Positions 747 through 24,306 of a stretch of 28,029 nt of DNA are shown piece by piece. Both the position numbers and the translations under genes were made by a program. Position 1 is the first letter of the stretch. Each line of letters starts with the position of its first letter. Source of the DNA: a virus; the IMG/VR virus record IMGVR_UViG_3300030000_000242, positions 1 to 28,029 of that record, one strand, 5' to 3'. The notes beneath the pieces are model-generated. The model worked only from the letters and a program-made list of their open reading frames with translations. It did not search any database and was not told the origin of the DNA.

Positions 747-1001
747 TTACACCATAACCTTAACATAGTCCACTATATCGATGCTATTCTCATTAACATT
801 ACAATCAACTGCAATTATATGTACACCTTGTTTCTTTGCTTCTTTTAATGCTTCTGCAAATTCTTTATGTGTTTCTGAATTAGGTTCAAAATGCATCACA
901 TCTTTCATTTGTATTACAAATATTATATAAGCCTCATAACCATCTTTTATACAATCGCAAAGTTCTCTAACATGCTTAACGCCTCTTTCTGTATATAGTG
1001 T
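747..1001 (-). pseudogene. sfsA: sfsA 3' fragment, disrupted by prophage integration
   Basis: The frame encodes 84 residues ending ...SIDIVDYVKVMV and containing TERGVKHVRELCDCIKDGY, FVIQMKDVMHFEPNSETHKE and KKQGVHIIAVDCNVNENS. These match the conserved C-terminal third of SfsA, a ~230-residue nucleic-acid-binding, sugar-fermentation-stimulation family protein. Going upstream, the similarity ends at the TERG motif (about 985-995) and an in-frame TAG follows at 1002-1004. There is no start codon or ribosome site. The simplest reading is that phage integration split sfsA, leaving the 5' two thirds beyond the far end of the prophage. Alternatively the fragment is an old degraded copy, but the intact C-terminus with no internal stop favours a recent insertion. 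Confidence 0.85.
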
Positions 1002-1004: not shown

Positions 1005-1019
1005 ATTAGTAAACATAAA

Positions 1020-1050
1020 TTAAAGCTAGGAAATTTAATCCTAGCTTTAA
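1020..1050 (-). terminator. Rho-independent terminator at the prophage edge
   Basis: A perfect stem, TTAAAGCTAGG with CCTAGCTTTAA plus one more A-T pair, closes a 7-nt loop. On the minus strand it is followed by TTTATGTTT. It lies about 70 bases past the DUF4236 gene and would end the moron transcript before it enters host sfsA. The plus-strand side also has TTTT, so it may work in both directions. Confidence 0.75.
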
Positions 1051-1121
1051 TTTTATGTTATCCTACATACTTACTGAAATATATGTAATAATCATCTATA
1101 CTTTATTTTTTCCCCTAGTTC

Positions 1122-1571
1122 TTATCTATTCTTTCTAATTTTATATTCTTGATTTATTCTTTTCCAATTCTTAGCCATACAAACTAAACTTGATATTAAA
1201 AGTATAATTGCAATAAATAATAGTGGTGGGAATATAAATCCAATAAATAAACATGGAAATCCTAAAAACAATAATGTTATATGTCTAGTATAACTATTAG
1301 CTAAATTTTCTTTAATGTTATTGCCTATAGGATCTTGAACTATATTGCTATTTTCCATTGTTGCTGCTGGAGTATTATTTTTACCCATACTCTTAAATGA
1401 TTTTCTTTTACTATATCTAATTCCATTAGCACCTACAGAACCACCAACACCATTTTTATTTACTGATACTCTAACACCTTTTACACCTGCAGATAATCCT
1501 ACACCAGTTTTACCAACACTTACATTTAAAAGTTTACCAACTTTAATTGATTTCCTAAAATTTAGTCCCAT
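1122..1571 (-). CDS. DUF4236 family membrane protein (prophage cargo)
   Basis: The protein has 149 aa. Residues 1-60 (GLNFRKSIKVGKLLNVSVGK..., VGLSAGVKGVRVSVNKNGVG, GANGIRYSKRK) are the glycine-rich DUF4236 domain. The family is widespread in bacteria and has no established function. A polar linker follows, then two strongly hydrophobic segments around residues 95-138 and a basic tail, giving a likely inner-membrane hairpin with the DUF4236 domain in the cytoplasm. The ATG at 1571 is chosen because GGGAGGT sits six bases upstream; earlier in-frame starts fall within or abut that site. The gene lies 26 bp downstream of the wall-binding protein gene and probably shares its transcript. It lies outside the late operon, so it is a candidate lysogenic-conversion gene. 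Confidence 0.8.
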   Translation of the reverse strand: MGLNFRKSIKVGKLLNVSVGKTGVGLSAGVKGVRVSVNKNGVGGSVGANGIRYSKRKSFKSMGKNNTPAATMENSNIVQDPIGNNIKENLANSYTRHITLLFLGFPCLFIGFIFPPLLFIAIILLISSLVCMAKNWKRINQEYKIRKNR

Positions 1572-1597
1572 GATCATACCTCCCCCCAATATTTATT

Positions 1598-2128
1598 TTA
1601 TTGAATCCAAACTCCATCAGCACCAATTTTATATCCATCTTGTGTAGTTGTATTTATTGCCATTGTTAAGTCTGAATTGAAATAATACCACTTGCCATTA
1701 ATTAATTGCCAACCTGCATTAATTGGAACTATTGTTGTTGCCATTTGACCTTTTTGTCCTTTACTAATATCATTATGATTTATACCATATATTCCAGTAC
1801 CATCTGCATTAATGATATATCCATCTATAATTGCATTAGTTAACATTTTTCCTGTGTTATCAAAGTAATACCAGTCTGTTTTATGTTCTTTAGTCCATTT
1901 TCCATTATCGTCTTTATTTACTACTCGCCACCATCCTGTTTTAAGATCAGTACCAACTGTATAATATTTATTGTTATTTATTTCATGCCAGCGTTCATAC
2001 CAAATTGAGACTGTAACTTTCTCACCATCAATTGTAAGAGTTTCATTGTCAATATTTTGTTTTGCACTTACACCTACAGGCAATAACAGTATTAAAATTA
2101 ATAACACTATTGAAATTATCTTTTTCAT
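1598..2128 (-). CDS. Secreted protein with cell-wall-binding (choline-binding-like) repeats
   Basis: The protein has 176 aa. Residues 1-22 are a classic signal peptide (MKK, a hydrophobic core, then GVSA before KQ). The mature part has aromatic/glycine repeats of the CW_binding_1 type: GWWRVV...WYYFDNTGKML..DGYIINADG (about 65-112) and GWQLINGKWYYFNSDLTMA...DGYKIGADGVW (about 139-174). No catalytic domain is visible, so it looks like a wall-anchoring or wall-masking protein, not a hydrolase. The repeats resemble those on the phage endolysin at 2373-3101. The gene has its own promoter and is separated from the lysis genes by a strong terminator, so it is probably expressed in the lysogen. Its exact role is unknown. 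Confidence 0.8.
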   Translation of the reverse strand: MKKIISIVLLILILLLPVGVSAKQNIDNETLTIDGEKVTVSIWYERWHEINNNKYYTVGTDLKTGWWRVVNKDDNGKWTKEHKTDWYYFDNTGKMLTNAIIDGYIINADGTGIYGINHNDISKGQKGQMATTIVPINAGWQLINGKWYYFNSDLTMAINTTTQDGYKIGADGVWIQ

Positions 2129-2164
2129 TATAATCTACACCCTTTCATACTTATTATTACTTTT

Positions 2165-2192
2165 ATTGTATATTAATTGGTATATTTGTCAA
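2165..2192 (-). promoter_or_regulatory. Sigma-A-type promoter for the moron cassette
   Basis: On the minus strand TTGACA (2187-2192) is followed 16 bases later by TACAAT (2165-2170), a perfect -35 and a one-mismatch -10. It lies about 40 bases upstream of the secreted-protein start, with AGGGTG as ribosome site. It is independent of the phage late operon, which ends at the terminator at 2316-2340. Confidence 0.75.
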
Positions 2193-2315
2193 ATATAAAT
2201 ACTAAATGATGTGATTTTATGTTAGATTATTTATACATAATAGCTTTAATTCTATATGGAATATTTATAGATAGATTTTCAATTTTTATATATAAGAAAT
2301 TATAAAAAAATTAAA

Positions 2316-2340
2316 GGGTACAGGATTAACTCCTATACCC
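2316..2340 (-). terminator. Late-operon terminator after the endolysin
   Basis: Read on the minus strand, GGGUAUAGGA pairs with UCCUGUACCC (10 pairs, one G-U wobble) around a 5-nt loop and runs into UUUAAUUUUUUU. It sits 33 bases past the endolysin stop and marks the end of the structural and lysis operon. Confidence 0.85.
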
Positions 2341-2372: not shown

Positions 2373-3101
2373 TTAAATATTGCCTGTATAGTCTGCATTT
2401 AAAAACATAGTAGCTTCTTTAGTTCTCCTTCTGTAAAGTCCTTCTATTCTCATTCCTCCACCATTGCTCCATGCTTGAAAATTAGAAGTGATTATAGCTG
2501 AATTTCTTACTCCAGCAACTACATTTTTATATAGAGTAGATTGATTAATTAAACCATCTGTTCCACAATTATATGCAAAACTTACTAGAGCGTCAAATTC
2601 GTTTTGATTTAATACTATACCTTTAGAATCTAAATCAGATTTAATAATAGGTGCATATTTATTATTAATCCAATTTCTTAACATTTCTGTTGCTTGTACC
2701 TCTGTAACACTTGATAATTCTTGTATTTCTTCTCCTGTCATTCCATAACCTAATGTTAATACTCCAACTTCATCATAATATGGAGTAGCTGAAAAGCCCT
2801 CCCATGACTTAATAAAATTAATAAGCGCATCTGATACTAATTTATTATTTTCAATCCATGCTCCAGAACTGTCAAAACGATAAGATTTGCCATCTATAGT
2901 ATAAGACCCATTGCAATACATAGCACCCATGTTTCCATTACTGGAAGGTTCTAAGTAATACCATTTTTCATTTGTATCTCTTATCCACCCTGTTTGCATA
3001 ATTCCTTCATCATTTAAATAATACCAAGTGCCATTATCTTTATACCAACCCTTTACAACTTTCCCATCTGGACCTTGTACACACCATTTCCAGTTAGACA
3101 T
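2373..3101 (-). CDS. Endolysin: wall-binding repeats plus GH24 lysozyme
   Basis: The protein has 242 aa. Residues 1-85 are wall-binding repeats (GWYKDNGTWYYLNDEGIMQT, GWIRDTNEKWYYLEP, YTIDGKSYRFDSSGAW). Residues 88-235 are a T4-type lysozyme (glycoside hydrolase family 24), which cuts the MurNAc-GlcNAc bond of peptidoglycan. The catalytic triad E101-D110-T116 keeps the T4 spacing (9 and 6 residues). There is no signal peptide, so release depends on the holin encoded 2 bp upstream. The start is preceded by AAAGGAGG. Placing the binding module before the catalytic domain reverses the usual Gram-positive endolysin order. Confidence 0.92.
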   Translation of the reverse strand: MSNWKWCVQGPDGKVVKGWYKDNGTWYYLNDEGIMQTGWIRDTNEKWYYLEPSSNGNMGAMYCNGSYTIDGKSYRFDSSGAWIENNKLVSDALINFIKSWEGFSATPYYDEVGVLTLGYGMTGEEIQELSSVTEVQATEMLRNWINNKYAPIIKSDLDSKGIVLNQNEFDALVSFAYNCGTDGLINQSTLYKNVVAGVRNSAIITSNFQAWSNGGGMRIEGLYRRRTKEATMFLNADYTGNI

Positions 3102-3103
3102 AA

Positions 3104-3535
3104 CTATTCCTCCTTTGAGCCTATAGGCAATTCATCTGTCATAATATCTAGAAAACTCTCTACTCTATCTCGCAACTTTTTAGGTACTGGCAAACCACAT
3201 AAAAGCATGTTCTTTAATATGCTTACAGCTTCATATAAAATGAAGAGAATAGAAAAGAATTCACATAACCCTAATTTATTTATACCTAAATAGCTTATCC
3301 ATTCTAGTGGTAACATAAATAATAGATTAAATGTAAAACACATATCTAATGCTGCTAAGAAAGCAATGCACCCTAGCATAGCTACTTTTCTTATCCCCCC
3401 ATCTATTCCAACACCACTATTAAATTTTCTTTCCTTTATCGCTCTTAAAACCCCTAAAAATGTATCTAAAAATATAGCCCATACGACTATTTGTGCAAAT
3501 AAATTATGTGTTAATGAATTAATATAATTTTCCAT
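3104..3535 (-). CDS. Holin, TcdE/UtxA-like (phage_holin_4 family)
   Basis: The protein has 143 aa. It contains the family signature VVWAIFLDTFLGVLRAIKER, then GVGIDGGIRKVAMLGCIAFL, followed by further hydrophobic segments (FTFNLLFMLPLEWISYLGI and EFFSILFILYEAVSILKNM). That suggests three or four membrane spans with a charged C-terminal tail (KLRDRVESFLDIM). The family forms membrane lesions that release endolysin; its best-known member, TcdE of Clostridioides difficile, also influences toxin release. The endolysin start lies 2 bp past the stop, so the two form a standard lysis pair. AAGG lies upstream of the ATG. Confidence 0.9.
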   Translation of the reverse strand: MENYINSLTHNLFAQIVVWAIFLDTFLGVLRAIKERKFNSGVGIDGGIRKVAMLGCIAFLAALDMCFTFNLLFMLPLEWISYLGINKLGLCEFFSILFILYEAVSILKNMLLCGLPVPKKLRDRVESFLDIMTDELPIGSKEE

Positions 3536-3654: not shown

Positions 3655-6600
3655 TTACAATGTGTTTAGAAATGCTAATATTTTATCAGCTAACACTTGA
3701 TGCCCAGCATCATTAGGGTGAAGCCCATCTGGGTCTACATAACCTGGTGCTGTAAAATAATAACTGTTTGATGCTGAATTTTGAACATTTAGATTTGCGT
3801 TACTGTATAAATCTAGCACCGGTATTCCAAAGTGATTACCATACTTTATAATTAAATCACTTAATTGTTTTAGAGTATATCCTTGCCCATTATTTGAAGC
3901 TAAACTTCCGTAATTATCACTTCTTTGAAGTGGTGTAAAAATAGCTAAAATCTTAGTTGGGTACTTAGCTACTAAATTAGTTAATAGAGTATTTATACAA
4001 CCACTAATAGTCACAGTTCCAGTATCTCCGAACATTCCTAAAGCTTTATTATTTGAAGCTACATTTGCCCAGTCATTAGTTCCGAAGAAAACAGTAATCA
4101 AATCTGCTATTTCAGTTATACCAGCTAAATCATTTCTTCCGTAATAGCCTGTTCCACTAATTCCTTTATTTATTACCGTGCATCCTATCTTAGATGCAAT
4201 ATAATCGTGATAATTTTTAGATGTTCTGAAATTATGCTCTGTTATACTATCACCGATGCACATCCAAGTTTTTCCGTTCCATCTACTAGCCATTACTTCT
4301 TTAATAAAACTTAAATCTAACCAATCGAAACTATATTTTGATTTTTCATTATACTCAAGATAGGTGCTTGGATAAGTGCTGCCATTTACAATATTCATAT
4401 TAGCAGCGCCAGCTGCACCATTATCACAATTCCAAATCAAATATCTAGCGTTAAACGGTGATTTCAAAGTAATCGTTGATAGAGATATACTTGATAACTC
4501 TGATATATATTTCTTATCTTTATCATACCACGCACCACTTTGGTCACACATTTTATAGAACGTATAATCTGTATTAGGCTCAATCTCTATATATTCTGTA
4601 TGATATAAAGCTGATGAACTAGATGCTAAAGGCAACCCTGTTGTATCTTGAATATACTCATAAAAAACAACAGCGCTTGGATTAAGTAGATTTTTTGTAA
4701 CTAAAGTTGCTCCCTTAATTTGAGTAGGTAAAACTTCCAACCATTCAGCATTATAAATATCTTCATCACCGGTATACGCTACATATGTATCAGGCAGCGC
4801 ATTCCCTCTGACTATCATATCTAATTTTGCACCCTCTATATCATCATCACAATTCCATCTTAAATATTTAGCTTTCATAGGCGAACAAATTAAAGCATTA
4901 TATTTAGTTGTACCAATTTCTTCTATACACAAAGGAGAAATATAAACTTTATCTTTGTCATACCACGCTCCGCTTGATGTACATATTTTAGAGAACGTGT
5001 AATTTGTGTTTGATTCAATTTCTATATAATCTGTGCAATAAACATTAGTTCCAAAAGCGAACGATTCAGTTCCATCTGATGGTACTATATAGCGTGAATA
5101 AGTAACTCTTTCTTTATTGAATAAATTTCTAACTACAATATTAATATCTTTAATTTGAGAATGTTTAACACTCAAATTATCAACACTATATACATTGGAA
5201 TATTTATTATACGGAAGATAAACACTTGGATAAGAGCTACCTTTCACAATCATAGATTTTAATGAACCAGCTAAACCATCATCACAATTCCACATTAAAT
5301 ACTTAGCGTTTTTCGGAGACAATATAGTTGGCTTAGATAAACTTTTTGGTAACCCTGAAATAAAAATTTTATCCTTATCATACCATGCTCCGCTCTCGTC
5401 ACAAGTTTTTGAAAACGTGTATTTTGTATCGGGAAATATTTCAATATAATCTGTACGGTATATATCTTTAGATGCGTTTATTTTTATAGTACCATCAACT
5501 TCAGCTATATACTCTCCAAAAATAGCCTCTTTTTGATTGAAAATATTCCCTAACTGTTCATCTAGTAATACACCGTCTATACTTTTGAGATTAACTAAAT
5601 TATCTTTTGACATTATATTACCAAATTTATTATCTAAATACTCATGAGTTATAAAACCTTTATTAAAATAATTTTGTAGGCTTACATAAGACAACGATGC
5701 TGGGGCGAATAAACCTACTGCTTTTATTGGGAATGCAATCCCATTTATAGTAACACCAATATTTCTAAAGTAACCTGTTGTATACAATGCCCTATTCGTT
5801 TGTTTAACAGCAATCATAAAATGTGCATAATTATAAGATGTTGAAGGCAATACTCCTCTAGTCGCTGAATAATATGAAAACTTTTTAGGTGTAACCGGAA
5901 TAGGAGCGTATGTTGTACCATAAGCTATATCTCCACCTAGAACATCACCCGCCATACTAGAATTGTTTAAAAATATTCTCATACCAACACCGATGTTATT
6001 AGCGTCCTCTGAATAAAAATCAAAAGACATCACGCATTGACTATTTATATCTATCTGTGAGCTAGAAATAGCATTTGTCATATCAACAACTATATCTATT
6101 AAAATATCATCATAATCAGCTTTTTGATAAAATTTATATATCGGAACATCACTTACTAAAGTGTCCGCTAATTTATTATAATCAATAGCTTTATCATTCA
6201 CTCCGGTTGCTTGATAAACTCCACCAGGTACCCATCCAGCATTATAATAATACCAATAACCATCGGCAACTACTACATAAGTATTAGAATTTCCTGTAGG
6301 AAAAGCTGTCTGTAATAATGCCAAGGTTGCATAAATTCCTTTAGGTCCACCACCTGCTAAACTTAATATAGTATTTGTATTTTTAGCAGATTGCGTGGCA
6401 AGTGAATTAATTCTATCATCTATTTCTATAATATCCGGATGCAAAGAAACAAAATCATTTATATTTTTAAAATAATCAGTGGCTTGGTCTAATTTATTTT
6501 CTAGTTCTTCCAGTAAAGTATATGTAGCTGTGCTTATACTTGCATTTACTTCAAGTGTACTTGGTACTACATTTAAAACTAAATTAAAAGTGGCTTTCTT

Positions 6601-6915
6601 TTTGCCTGTAGATTTATTAATAAACTGTACTTCTATTAAAGTTTTTCCAGATGTAGTTGTTAATTGTTCATTAGCTTCTATAGTAACCATATTGCTTGGA
6701 TTAGTTGAAATAGTAATTCCAGCATGTTCTTGAACGAGTGGCACTTTATCTGATTTCATAGCCTTTAATCTTACATTGTAATTGCTTAAATCTGCTTGTA
6801 AACTATTATCATATATACTTAAGATCAAATTTAAACTATCAAATTGCTTACAGGTAGCATAGATATTTAAATTTTGCTTAAGATCTAAACTTGCTGTTAA
6901 ATCATGTATTGACAT
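3655..6915 (-). CDS. Tail tip/receptor-binding protein: BppU N-terminus, triplicated module, SGNH hydrolase
   Basis: The protein has 1086 aa. Residues 1-160 resemble the BppU N-terminal domain that docks side-tail proteins onto the baseplate. A short coiled-coil-like stretch (about 133-185) and a beta-rich middle follow. Residues 458-570, 597-715 and 742-856 are three copies of one module with the shared core YIEI..NT.YTFSK.C..SGAWYDKDK..IS, ending in AKYL.WNCDD. Residues 880-1086 are an SGNH/GDSL hydrolase: GDSIT (S890), G918, GTND (N947) and DGLHPN (D1063, H1066) give all four blocks. Members of this family hydrolyse esters, often O-acetyl groups on sugars. The inferred role is host-surface recognition plus deacylation of a wall or capsular glycan. 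The start is preceded by AGAGGTG. Confidence 0.85.
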   Translation of the reverse strand: MSIHDLTASLDLKQNLNIYATCKQFDSLNLILSIYDNSLQADLSNYNVRLKAMKSDKVPLVQEHAGITISTNPSNMVTIEANEQLTTTSGKTLIEVQFINKSTGKKKATFNLVLNVVPSTLEVNASISTATYTLLEELENKLDQATDYFKNINDFVSLHPDIIEIDDRINSLATQSAKNTNTILSLAGGGPKGIYATLALLQTAFPTGNSNTYVVVADGYWYYYNAGWVPGGVYQATGVNDKAIDYNKLADTLVSDVPIYKFYQKADYDDILIDIVVDMTNAISSSQIDINSQCVMSFDFYSEDANNIGVGMRIFLNNSSMAGDVLGGDIAYGTTYAPIPVTPKKFSYYSATRGVLPSTSYNYAHFMIAVKQTNRALYTTGYFRNIGVTINGIAFPIKAVGLFAPASLSYVSLQNYFNKGFITHEYLDNKFGNIMSKDNLVNLKSIDGVLLDEQLGNIFNQKEAIFGEYIAEVDGTIKINASKDIYRTDYIEIFPDTKYTFSKTCDESGAWYDKDKIFISGLPKSLSKPTILSPKNAKYLMWNCDDGLAGSLKSMIVKGSSYPSVYLPYNKYSNVYSVDNLSVKHSQIKDINIVVRNLFNKERVTYSRYIVPSDGTESFAFGTNVYCTDYIEIESNTNYTFSKICTSSGAWYDKDKVYISPLCIEEIGTTKYNALICSPMKAKYLRWNCDDDIEGAKLDMIVRGNALPDTYVAYTGDEDIYNAEWLEVLPTQIKGATLVTKNLLNPSAVVFYEYIQDTTGLPLASSSSALYHTEYIEIEPNTDYTFYKMCDQSGAWYDKDKKYISELSSISLSTITLKSPFNARYLIWNCDNGAAGAANMNIVNGSTYPSTYLEYNEKSKYSFDWLDLSFIKEVMASRWNGKTWMCIGDSITEHNFRTSKNYHDYIASKIGCTVINKGISGTGYYGRNDLAGITEIADLITVFFGTNDWANVASNNKALGMFGDTGTVTISGCINTLLTNLVAKYPTKILAIFTPLQRSDNYGSLASNNGQGYTLKQLSDLIIKYGNHFGIPVLDLYSNANLNVQNSASNSYYFTAPGYVDPDGLHPNDAGHQVLADKILAFLNTL
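4348..5544 (-). repeat. Three tandem in-frame modules within the receptor-binding gene
   Basis: Three ~113-119-residue units (5544-5206, 5127-4771, 4692-4348) share NLxN, TDYIEIE.NT.YTFSK, SGAWYDKDK, and WNCDD...M.V.GSSYPS.YL.YN. The units are clearly diverged from one another and separated by 26-residue linkers. The size and the aromatic/Asp-rich motif suggest a sugar-binding beta-sandwich, but this is inference. Confidence 0.85.
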
Positions 6916-20903: not shown

Positions 20904-21206
20904 TTAAGGTGGGGGGATACTTGAAATTAATTTCTTTATCCTCTCCACCCATTGAATTCCTGTAGATGTTAGGTCATTGTTTGTTCTATCATGCATCTTC
21001 TCATGGCACTTACTACATAAACTAATTAAATTATTATTATTTAATTTAAGTTCTAGTTTTTGTTCCAAAGGAATAACATGATGTACTGTTGTAGCTCCTG
21101 TAGTCTTTCCATACCTTATACATTCTCTGCATAGATAATTGTCACGCTTTAATATATTTATTCTCTTAGTTTTCCATCTTGTGGATTTATAAAAGTCTTT
21201 AGACAT
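20904..21206 (-). CDS. HNH endonuclease (packaging-associated)
   Basis: The protein has 100 aa. It has a canonical zinc-stapled HNH: C26-x2-C29, HHVIPL (H42/H43), N59 in NNNNLISLC, then C64-x2-C67-H68 and H72. It starts KDFYKSTRWKTKRINILKRD, as is usual for HNH proteins next to terS. In HK97-like phages this nicking enzyme works with terminase in specific DNA cleavage during packaging. It is the first gene of the late operon, 25 nt past the 19-bp hairpin. GGAGA precedes the ATG. Confidence 0.9.
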   Translation of the reverse strand: MSKDFYKSTRWKTKRINILKRDNYLCRECIRYGKTTGATTVHHVIPLEQKLELKLNNNNLISLCSKCHEKMHDRTNNDLTSTGIQWVERIKKLISSIPPP

Positions 21207-23691: not shown

Positions 23692-24306
23692 TCACTTTCT
23701 GTCACTTATTTTGTTATATATATCTGCGATGATTAAACCGGTTCTAGTTAAATCCGCATCATTTTGTATCAAGTTATTTTTATTTAATGTTAATAATTGC
23801 TTTTGAGATACTAAAATTAAATTATTAATGTCTAAATTACTTTTATCCCTATCCCCAAATATCACATTATGATTTTCAGGTATTAATCCATTATGTTCCT
23901 CCCAAACGATTCTATGTTTTAGTTTCCACTCGTGAGGTTCAGCAACTTTAATTTCTACATATCCATATACATTTATTCTTTCACTTCCTAAAGGTCTATG
24001 ATTTATTGCTTCATTTCCTTTTTTAAACCAGGTCTTTTTACATCCTTCATATATGACTCCTTTAATTCCTTTATTTGCAGGAGTATGTCCTCTATTAAAT
24101 TGTCCTGTAATTCCTGTACTCAATTTATATCTACCAATAGCACCTTTTATCTGATCTATAGTAAAACTCAACTTGAATTTTTTATTCATAAGTTCTTGAA
24201 TTTCAATGTAATGATGTCCTGGGGTTATCTTTTTTAAATATTCTTTTTCCGCTTCACTCCATATATGAAACGCTCTATTTTTACTCCCTTTAGGTCTACC
24301 TTTCAT
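23692..24306 (-). CDS. HNH_3-type endonuclease-like protein, active site incomplete
   Basis: The protein has 204 aa. Residues 1-65 (GRPKGSKNRAFHIWSEAEKE, YLKKITPGHHYIEIQELMNK) form a basic helix-turn-helix/SANT-like DNA-binding region. Residues ~110-170 (GYVEIKVAEPHEWKLKHRIV, WEEHNGLIPENHNVIFGDRD, KSNLDINNLILVS) are an HNH_3 domain of the free-standing homing type. H131 is kept, but the usual second histidine before the DGD turn is replaced in VIFGDRD (F150), so cleavage may be lost and the protein may act as a DNA-binding factor. AGAAGG precedes the ATG. Confidence 0.8.
   Translation of the reverse strand: MKGRPKGSKNRAFHIWSEAEKEYLKKITPGHHYIEIQELMNKKFKLSFTIDQIKGAIGRYKLSTGITGQFNRGHTPANKGIKGVIYEGCKKTWFKKGNEAINHRPLGSERINVYGYVEIKVAEPHEWKLKHRIVWEEHNGLIPENHNVIFGDRDKSNLDINNLILVSQKQLLTLNKNNLIQNDADLTRTGLIIADIYNKISDRK

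What the first reader, a model, noticed from the sequence alone, without database searches (positions are those of the whole stretch)
1020..2340. Self-contained moron cassette beside the attachment site: secreted wall-binding protein plus DUF4236 membrane protein
Two genes lie beyond the late-operon terminator, with their own near-consensus promoter (TTGACA-16-TACAAT) and own terminator at the attL/attR edge. One product is exported and carries wall-binding repeats but no hydrolase. The other pairs a DUF4236 domain of unknown function with a membrane hairpin. This layout predicts expression in the lysogen and suggests a surface-acting trait, such as exclusion of related phages by masking the wall ligand shared with the endolysin, or a defence pair. 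The function is inference.
Basis: partly seen in the sequence, partly recalled or inferred. Interest (0 to 1): 0.75.

Follow-up and report, generated by a model that had tools for sequence, protein, structure and literature searches.

The report
Prophage surface-gene cassette with host-type promoter
At one end of a dormant virus in a Clostridium beijerinckii-like bacterium sit two accessory genes, for a wall-binding protein and a membrane protein, run by a promoter that these bacteria and their other prophages place in front of surface proteins; the likeliest role is altering the cell envelope, probably to keep rival phages out.

Summary
Two minus-strand genes lie between the lysozyme terminator and the phage/host junction (sfsA, window 993): a secreted protein with choline-binding repeats and no hydrolase (1598-2128), and a DUF4236 membrane protein (1122-1571), sharing one promoter at 2192-2165.

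New here: (1) That promoter belongs to a class, TTGACA-N14-TATACAAT, found in 20 Clostridium genomes (69 sites against 10 control matches). 47 of 57 downstream genes are exported or membrane proteins, including Ltp and choline-binding proteins. A model built from host sites finds it as the only strong site in the window, and just before surface genes beside the lysin in other prophages. (2) The DUF4236 gene moves alone: a 90%-identical copy in another prophage lies beside an Ltp superinfection-exclusion gene. (3) DUF4236-membrane proteins recur in temperate phages next to the integrase, including the ImmA-X-integrase slot of TP-J34 ltp, and just before the tape-measure gene; they also occur in large, apparently virulent phages.

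Best reading: a lysogenic-conversion cassette expressed in the lysogen, most likely for superinfection exclusion at entry. Lysogen expression and envelope action are well supported by sequence; exclusion is inferred. The wall-masking mechanism has no direct support.

The parts
2165..2192 (-). promoter TTGACA-16-TACAAT of the Clostridium surface-protein class; start site expected near 2158
   Evidence: 11/12 match; host-site model scores it 34.8 bits, next site in the window 11.7, null maxima up to 10.5
1598..2128 (-). secreted choline-binding-repeat protein, 176 aa, no hydrolase domain
1122..1571 (-). DUF4236 membrane protein, 149 aa: cationic N-terminal domain, hydrophobic hairpin, basic tail
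   Evidence: 93% protein identity to L007
1122..1583 (-). block of 89.6% DNA identity to another prophage (L007), limited to the DUF4236 gene and its ribosome-binding site
1017..1053 (.). strong bidirectional hairpin at the prophage edge, probable terminator; a 37-base stretch is 92% alike after Ltp in L007
2315..2341 (-). intrinsic terminator that closes the late operon after the lysozyme gene
980..993 (.). last host bases before phage sequence; insertion interrupts sfsA
   Evidence: sfsA homology of four relatives ends here; single copy in record
2373..3101 (-). endolysin: phage lysozyme with N-terminal choline-binding repeats (upstream neighbour, not part of the cassette)
3104..3535 (-). 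holin (context)
   Evidence: PF05105

Best explanation
A lysogenic-conversion (moron) cassette at the lysin/attachment end of a siphovirus prophage. Shown by sequence: the two genes stand outside the late operon behind its terminator, share one promoter, and that promoter belongs to a class that host Clostridium genomes and other prophages put in front of surface proteins. Inferred: host RNA polymerase therefore transcribes the cassette in the lysogen. The first product is exported and held on the wall by choline-binding repeats. The second sits in the membrane with its strongly cationic DUF4236 domain on the cytoplasmic face. Inferred with moderate confidence: they change the envelope so that related phages fail at entry (superinfection exclusion). 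The likeliest step is genome injection, the step blocked by Ltp, with DUF4236 meeting the tape-measure conduit or the entering DNA at the inner membrane face. Of the chain, expression from the lysogen is about 0.85 likely, envelope action about 0.85, exclusion about 0.45.
For: Promoter class: 69 exact sites in 68 genomes of the genus against 10 for the reversed control; outside the genus 20 against 16. Downstream genes 47/57 exported or membrane against a 49% base rate, p 4e-6, with 8 choline-binding proteins (expected about 0.3) and five Pfam-confirmed Ltp proteins. A host-built model finds the window site alone, and in other prophages only sites before DUF4236, Ltp, choline-binding or other membrane proteins, including L054/L055 sites that did not match the defining pattern. 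Near-identical DUF4236 gene beside Ltp (PF07553 3e-48, phrog_4980 'superinfection exclusion' 7.6e-53) between lysin and integrase in L007. The same membrane anchor carries Ltp repeats in L007 and choline-binding repeats in L055 (E 5e-12). DUF4236 next to the integrase in 5/23 clusters (null 0.65, p 1.5e-4) and within three genes upstream of the tape measure in 5/23 (null 0.79, p 1e-4). M78 metalloprotease-DUF4236-integrase order in L078, L094, L186 matches int-ltp-metalloproteinase of TP-J34 (PMC3952083). Induced or temperate isolates show repressor-DUF4236-integrase. Domain charge +9 to +13 with almost no acidic residue, background median +1.
Against: No expression or infection data. Neither window protein has an Ltp domain and neither hits any PADLOC model. 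DUF4236 genes also occur in large, apparently virulent Klebsiella and Brevundimonas phages and in host chromosomes, once inside a ter operon, so the domain is not tied to prophages or exclusion. Neighbours of DUF4236 are not significantly enriched in exported proteins. Host genes under the same promoter include non-defence lipoproteins, so the promoter shows envelope wiring, not exclusion. Position tests use few clusters, several from one host genus.
Confidence: 0.5

Rival explanations
1. Host-fitness lysogenic conversion without phage exclusion: the cassette adds surface proteins that help the bacterium (adhesion, wall maintenance, stress), selected through the lysogen's growth.
For: The promoter class drives many ordinary surface genes in the host, including secreted metallo-beta-lactamase-fold lipoproteins and other secreted families; choline-binding proteins are abundant in these genomes; one DUF4236 gene lies in a ter operon.
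Against: The other occupants of the same slot under the same promoter are Ltp proteins in L007 and L149, and DUF4236 prefers integrase- and tape-measure-adjacent positions.
Confidence: 0.3
2. Wall masking or lysin buffering: the choline-binding protein occupies wall sites used by the endolysin or by receptor-binding proteins, blocking adsorption or sparing neighbouring lysogens from released lysin.
Against: Repeats of the two are only weakly alike; many host proteins carry such repeats, so one more would add little masking; it leaves DUF4236 unexplained; no evidence that the tail uses these ligands.
Confidence: 0.08
3. Lysis accessory: the two genes belong functionally to the lysis module and act late.
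For: They follow the holin and lysozyme genes on the same strand.
Against: Separated by a convincing terminator and supplied with a non-phage promoter class; no catalytic domain; relatives of DUF4236 lie far from lysis genes, including between repressor and integrase.
Confidence: 0.07
4. Passenger host DNA: a host surface gene block picked up by imprecise excision, with no function for the phage.
For: Host-type promoter class and host-type repeats; the block lies next to the attachment edge.
Against: The DUF4236 gene is shared at 90% identity with an unrelated prophage but no copy was found in genome contigs and it is absent from most genomes of the genus (6 of 68); similar cargo recurs at this slot in several prophages.
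Confidence: 0.05

Closest known systems
Ltp superinfection-exclusion proteins (PF07553; Streptococcus thermophilus phage TP-J34)
   Same: Prophage accessory genes with surface or membrane products; DUF4236 relatives occupy the same metalloprotease-X-integrase slot; the window's DUF4236 gene has a near twin beside an Ltp gene; same promoter class in Clostridium prophages.
   Different: Neither window protein has an Ltp domain. Ltp is a lipoprotein exposed outside; DUF4236 is probably cytoplasmic-facing. The window cassette lies at the lysin end, not in the lysogeny module.
Pneumococcal CbpL (choline-binding module plus Ltp domain; PMC5137146)
   Same: Shows that choline-binding repeats and Ltp modules can be combined in one surface protein.
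   Different: Chromosomal protein with an Excalibur domain; the window has repeats and DUF4236 in separate proteins and no Ltp domain.
HK97 gp15 and other inner-membrane exclusion morons
   Same: Small prophage membrane protein expected to act at DNA injection; DUF4236 relatives often lie just before the tape-measure gene.
   Different: No sequence relation tested or claimed; the gp15 paper was not held, so this rests on PMC10883804 and general knowledge.
SNIPE (membrane-bound DUF4041 plus GIY-YIG nuclease; PMC13190303)
   Same: Membrane-tethered protein with a positively charged cytoplasmic domain acting during genome injection.
   Different: No DUF4041 and no nuclease domain was found in the window proteins.
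DUF4236 family (PF14020; phrog_8279)
   Same: Member by profile score.
   Different: No function described; one paper in the searched library mentions the name.

Membership tests
Moron / lysogenic-conversion cassette | own promoter, outside phage lytic control | tested here: met
   sole strong site of a host promoter class in the window
Moron / lysogenic-conversion cassette | own terminator | tested here: inconclusive
   strong hairpin 1053-1017, no clear U-run on the gene side
Moron / lysogenic-conversion cassette | moves independently of neighbouring phage genes | tested here: met
   89.6% DNA identity to L007 confined to 1122-1583
Moron / lysogenic-conversion cassette | expressed in the lysogen | not testable with these tools
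   no transcript data
Ltp superinfection exclusion (PF07553) | Ltp repeat domain | tested here: not met
   no PF07553 match in either window protein
Ltp superinfection exclusion (PF07553) | blocks DNA injection of infecting phages | not testable with these tools
   needs infection assays
DUF4236 (PF14020) | profile score above cut-off | tested here: met
   42.6 against 27 bits
Choline-binding proteins | choline-binding repeats and export signal | tested here: met
   three Pfam families over cut-off; N-terminal hydrophobic segment
Choline-binding proteins | binds choline on the wall | not testable with these tools
   ligand of clostridial repeats not established here
Endolysin or wall hydrolase | catalytic domain | tested here: not met
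   none found in 1598-2128
Catalogued anti-phage defence systems | match to a PADLOC model | tested here: not met
   no hit up to E 0.1 for either protein
SNIPE | DUF4041 and GIY-YIG nuclease | tested here: not met
   no such domain

The most novel reading that the evidence does not exclude
DUF4236-membrane proteins are a widespread, undescribed family of phage-exclusion proteins that fill the same genomic slots as Ltp and act from the cytoplasmic face of the membrane through a cationic domain; in the C. beijerinckii group, prophages wire such cargo into a dedicated surface-protein promoter class shared with the host.
Probability: 0.3. Interest if true: 0.75.

Novelty: new variant of a known kind. 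Interest (0 to 1): 0.55.

Why it matters
It gives a function lead for DUF4236, a domain found in many phages with no described role, and makes that role directly testable. It also exposes a promoter class restricted to one group of Clostridium that marks surface genes in both host and prophage. That promoter can be used to find further lysogenic-conversion genes, and raises the question of which regulator couples prophage cargo to the host's envelope programme.

Tried and rejected
Fixed defence pair: rejected, because the DUF4236 gene moves alone and exported neighbours are not enriched. Known defence system: no PADLOC hit. Structured RNA: no Rfam match in the window. Structure prediction: both models are poor (mean pLDDT 57 and 59), so no fold search was run on them; the DUF4236 model suggests short strands then helix, with low confidence. 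DNA search of phage records with the cassette found nothing, and protein searches with the two window proteins found almost nothing; more typical DUF4236 relatives were needed. Search of genome contigs with the DUF4236 protein: none. First count of nine Ltp-like genes under the promoter was too generous: Pfam confirms the domain in five of seven checked; L214 and L228 are not confirmed and may share only the membrane anchor.

Full report
What the window is. The window is a whole IMG/VR record of 28,029 bases classed as linear. Its first 993 bases are host: minC and the 3' part of sfsA, closest to the Clostridium beijerinckii group. Homology to sfsA of four relatives ends at 993 and the relatives continue where the window diverges, so the prophage interrupts sfsA. 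The rest is a siphovirus-type prophage read mostly on the minus strand: terminase, portal, protease, capsid, tail tube, tape measure, tail proteins and tail fibre, then holin and a lysozyme with choline-binding repeats. The integrase end is missing.

The observation. All main points hold. After the lysozyme gene comes a strong terminator (2341-2315), then a promoter (2192-2165), then the secreted choline-binding-repeat protein (1598-2128), a 26-bp gap, the DUF4236 membrane protein (1122-1571), a strong hairpin (1053-1017) and the host junction at 993. The hairpin lacks a clear U-run on the gene side. The att repeats cannot be verified because only one end is in the record.

The promoter is a class, not a chance match. 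In L007, a different Clostridium prophage, both the DUF4236 gene and the following Ltp gene have TTGACA-16-TACAAT promoters; the three sequences also agree in the spacer. In about 200 loci there are nine distinct sites of this form, and eight stand 49-120 nt before exported or membrane proteins: choline-binding proteins, Ltp proteins, DUF4236 and one other membrane protein. In 68 genomes of the genus the pattern TTGACA-N14-TATACAAT occurs 69 times against 10 for the same pattern read backwards; in the other 139 genomes of the family it occurs 20 times against 16 (sums made by hand from the tables). Downstream genes in the genus are exported or membrane proteins in 47 of 57 cases by a crude hydropathy rule whose base rate on host contigs is 49% (p 4e-6), with 8 choline-binding proteins and 7 secreted metallo-beta-lactamase-fold proteins. 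Pfam confirms the Ltp domain in five of seven genes checked. A weight matrix built from host sites only gives the window site 34.8 bits; the next best site in 28 kb is 11.7 and random sequences reach 10.5. It also finds L007 (40.5 and 35.7), L149 (42.0, before Ltp), L058 (33.3, before a secreted choline-binding protein) and L055/L054 (25.9/24.9, 50 nt before a membrane-anchored choline-binding protein), the last two not matching the original pattern. Caveat: the host sites were collected with a pattern first seen in these prophages, so the fixed positions are not independent; the spacer positions, the downstream genes and L054/L055 are.

The two genes are not a fixed pair. DNA identity between the window and L007 (89.6%) is confined to the DUF4236 gene with its ribosome-binding site, 1122-1583. 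In L007 its neighbour is an Ltp protein (PF07553 3.1e-48; phrog_4980 'superinfection exclusion' 7.6e-53), followed by a hairpin like the window's and an integrase on the other strand. L055 carries, after a related lysin, a protein with the same membrane anchor as the L007 Ltp protein (40% over 52 residues, E 5e-12) but choline-binding repeats in place of Ltp repeats. L058/L059 have a secreted choline-binding protein directly after the lysin. Choline-binding and Ltp modules therefore look interchangeable at this slot. Pneumococcal CbpL, which joins both modules in one protein, is a published precedent (PMC5137146).

DUF4236 in general. A profile search of viral contigs returned 132 relatives, of which 80 were kept; those read fall into 22 clusters at 70% identity, 21 of which have a predicted membrane segment after the domain. 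In 23 clusters including the window the gene is next to an integrase in 5 (null 0.65, p 1.5e-4) and within three genes upstream of the tape measure in 5 (null 0.79, p 1e-4); exported neighbours are not significantly enriched. Several of the tape-measure cases come from similar Acinetobacter prophages, so these are not fully independent. Annotated isolates agree: repressor-DUF4236-integrase in Roseburia phage Shimadzu and regulator-DUF4236-integrase in an induced Ruminococcus gnavus phage, and DUF4236 next before the tape measure in a Clostridioides phage. In L078, L094 and L186 the order is HELGH metalloprotease, DUF4236, integrase (PF06114 in L078), the slot that ltp fills in TP-J34 (PMC3952083). 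In Clostridiaceae genomes the short DUF4236-membrane genes mostly lie in prophages before the terminase or before the tape measure. The domain is strikingly basic: net +9 to +13 in 58 residues, median no acidic residue, background median +1. By the positive-inside rule this favours a cytoplasmic domain (inference). A cysteine-rich tail found on some DUF4236 proteins also occurs on choline-binding proteins of L003, L004, L054 and L055 and on the CWB2 wall protein beside DUF4236 in L050, a second link between DUF4236 and wall-anchored proteins. Against a purely lysogenic role, DUF4236 genes occur in large, apparently virulent Klebsiella and Brevundimonas phages and on chromosomes, once in a ter operon.

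Mechanism. Shown by sequence: independent transcription unit, promoter class, export signal and wall repeats, DUF4236 plus membrane segment, mobility of the DUF4236 gene. Inferred: expression in the lysogen (about 0.85) and envelope action (about 0.85). Inferred with less confidence: superinfection exclusion (about 0.45), most likely at DNA injection, because the slot-mates and neighbours are Ltp proteins, whose target in TP-J34 is the tape-measure protein (PMC5137146 and PMC10883804 citing Bebeacua 2013), and because DUF4236 genes cluster near tape-measure and integrase genes. Host fitness without exclusion is the main rival (about 0.3).

Comparison and novelty. It works like a lysogenic-conversion module of the kind described after the lysis genes in S. 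thermophilus phages, and resembles Ltp-type exclusion cargo, but is not a member of the Ltp family (no PF07553 domain). DUF4236 has no described function; one paper in the library mentions the name. I rate it a new variant of a known kind, with the promoter class as the most useful by-product.

Noticed in passing
window 2165-2192; L007 5953 and 6701; L149 4916; L058 6968; L055 7989; host loci L199-L228 and L349-L387: Promoter class TTGACA-N14-TATACAAT with a partly conserved spacer precedes surface proteins in about 20 genomes of the genus; the regulator is unknown. Some sites lie near TPR-type (RRNPP-like by eye) regulators in L003, L004 and L149.
   Followed up: partly
window 1017-1053; L007 7524-7552: A hairpin with the core CTAGGATTAAATTTCCTAG is shared between the edges of two otherwise different prophages; terminator or another edge element.
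   Followed up: partly
window 980-993: The prophage interrupts sfsA in a Clostridium beijerinckii-like host.
   Followed up: partly
L026 1495-1668: A 57-aa DUF4236 protein without a membrane segment is encoded inside a ter-type operon, between a TerD protein and a TerF-like protein.
   Followed up: no
L050 5995-7524: DUF4236 gene next to a CWB2 wall-binding protein that carries the cysteine-rich tail also found on DUF4236 fusion proteins.
   Followed up: partly
L055 8039-11104: Cluster of cargo after the lysin, including a secreted metallo-beta-lactamase-fold protein with only a weak, below-cut-off match to Anti-Pycsar Apyc1.
   Followed up: no
window 3655-6915: The tail fibre ends in what looks by eye like an SGNH-type hydrolase (GDSIT motif).
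   Followed up: no
window 20904-21206 and 23692-24306: Two HNH endonuclease genes; the first lies just upstream of the terminase genes.
   Followed up: no
L198 3501-3818 (Klebsiella phage GZ7): DUF4236 gene alone on the opposite strand among tail genes, a typical moron layout in another host.
   Followed up: partly
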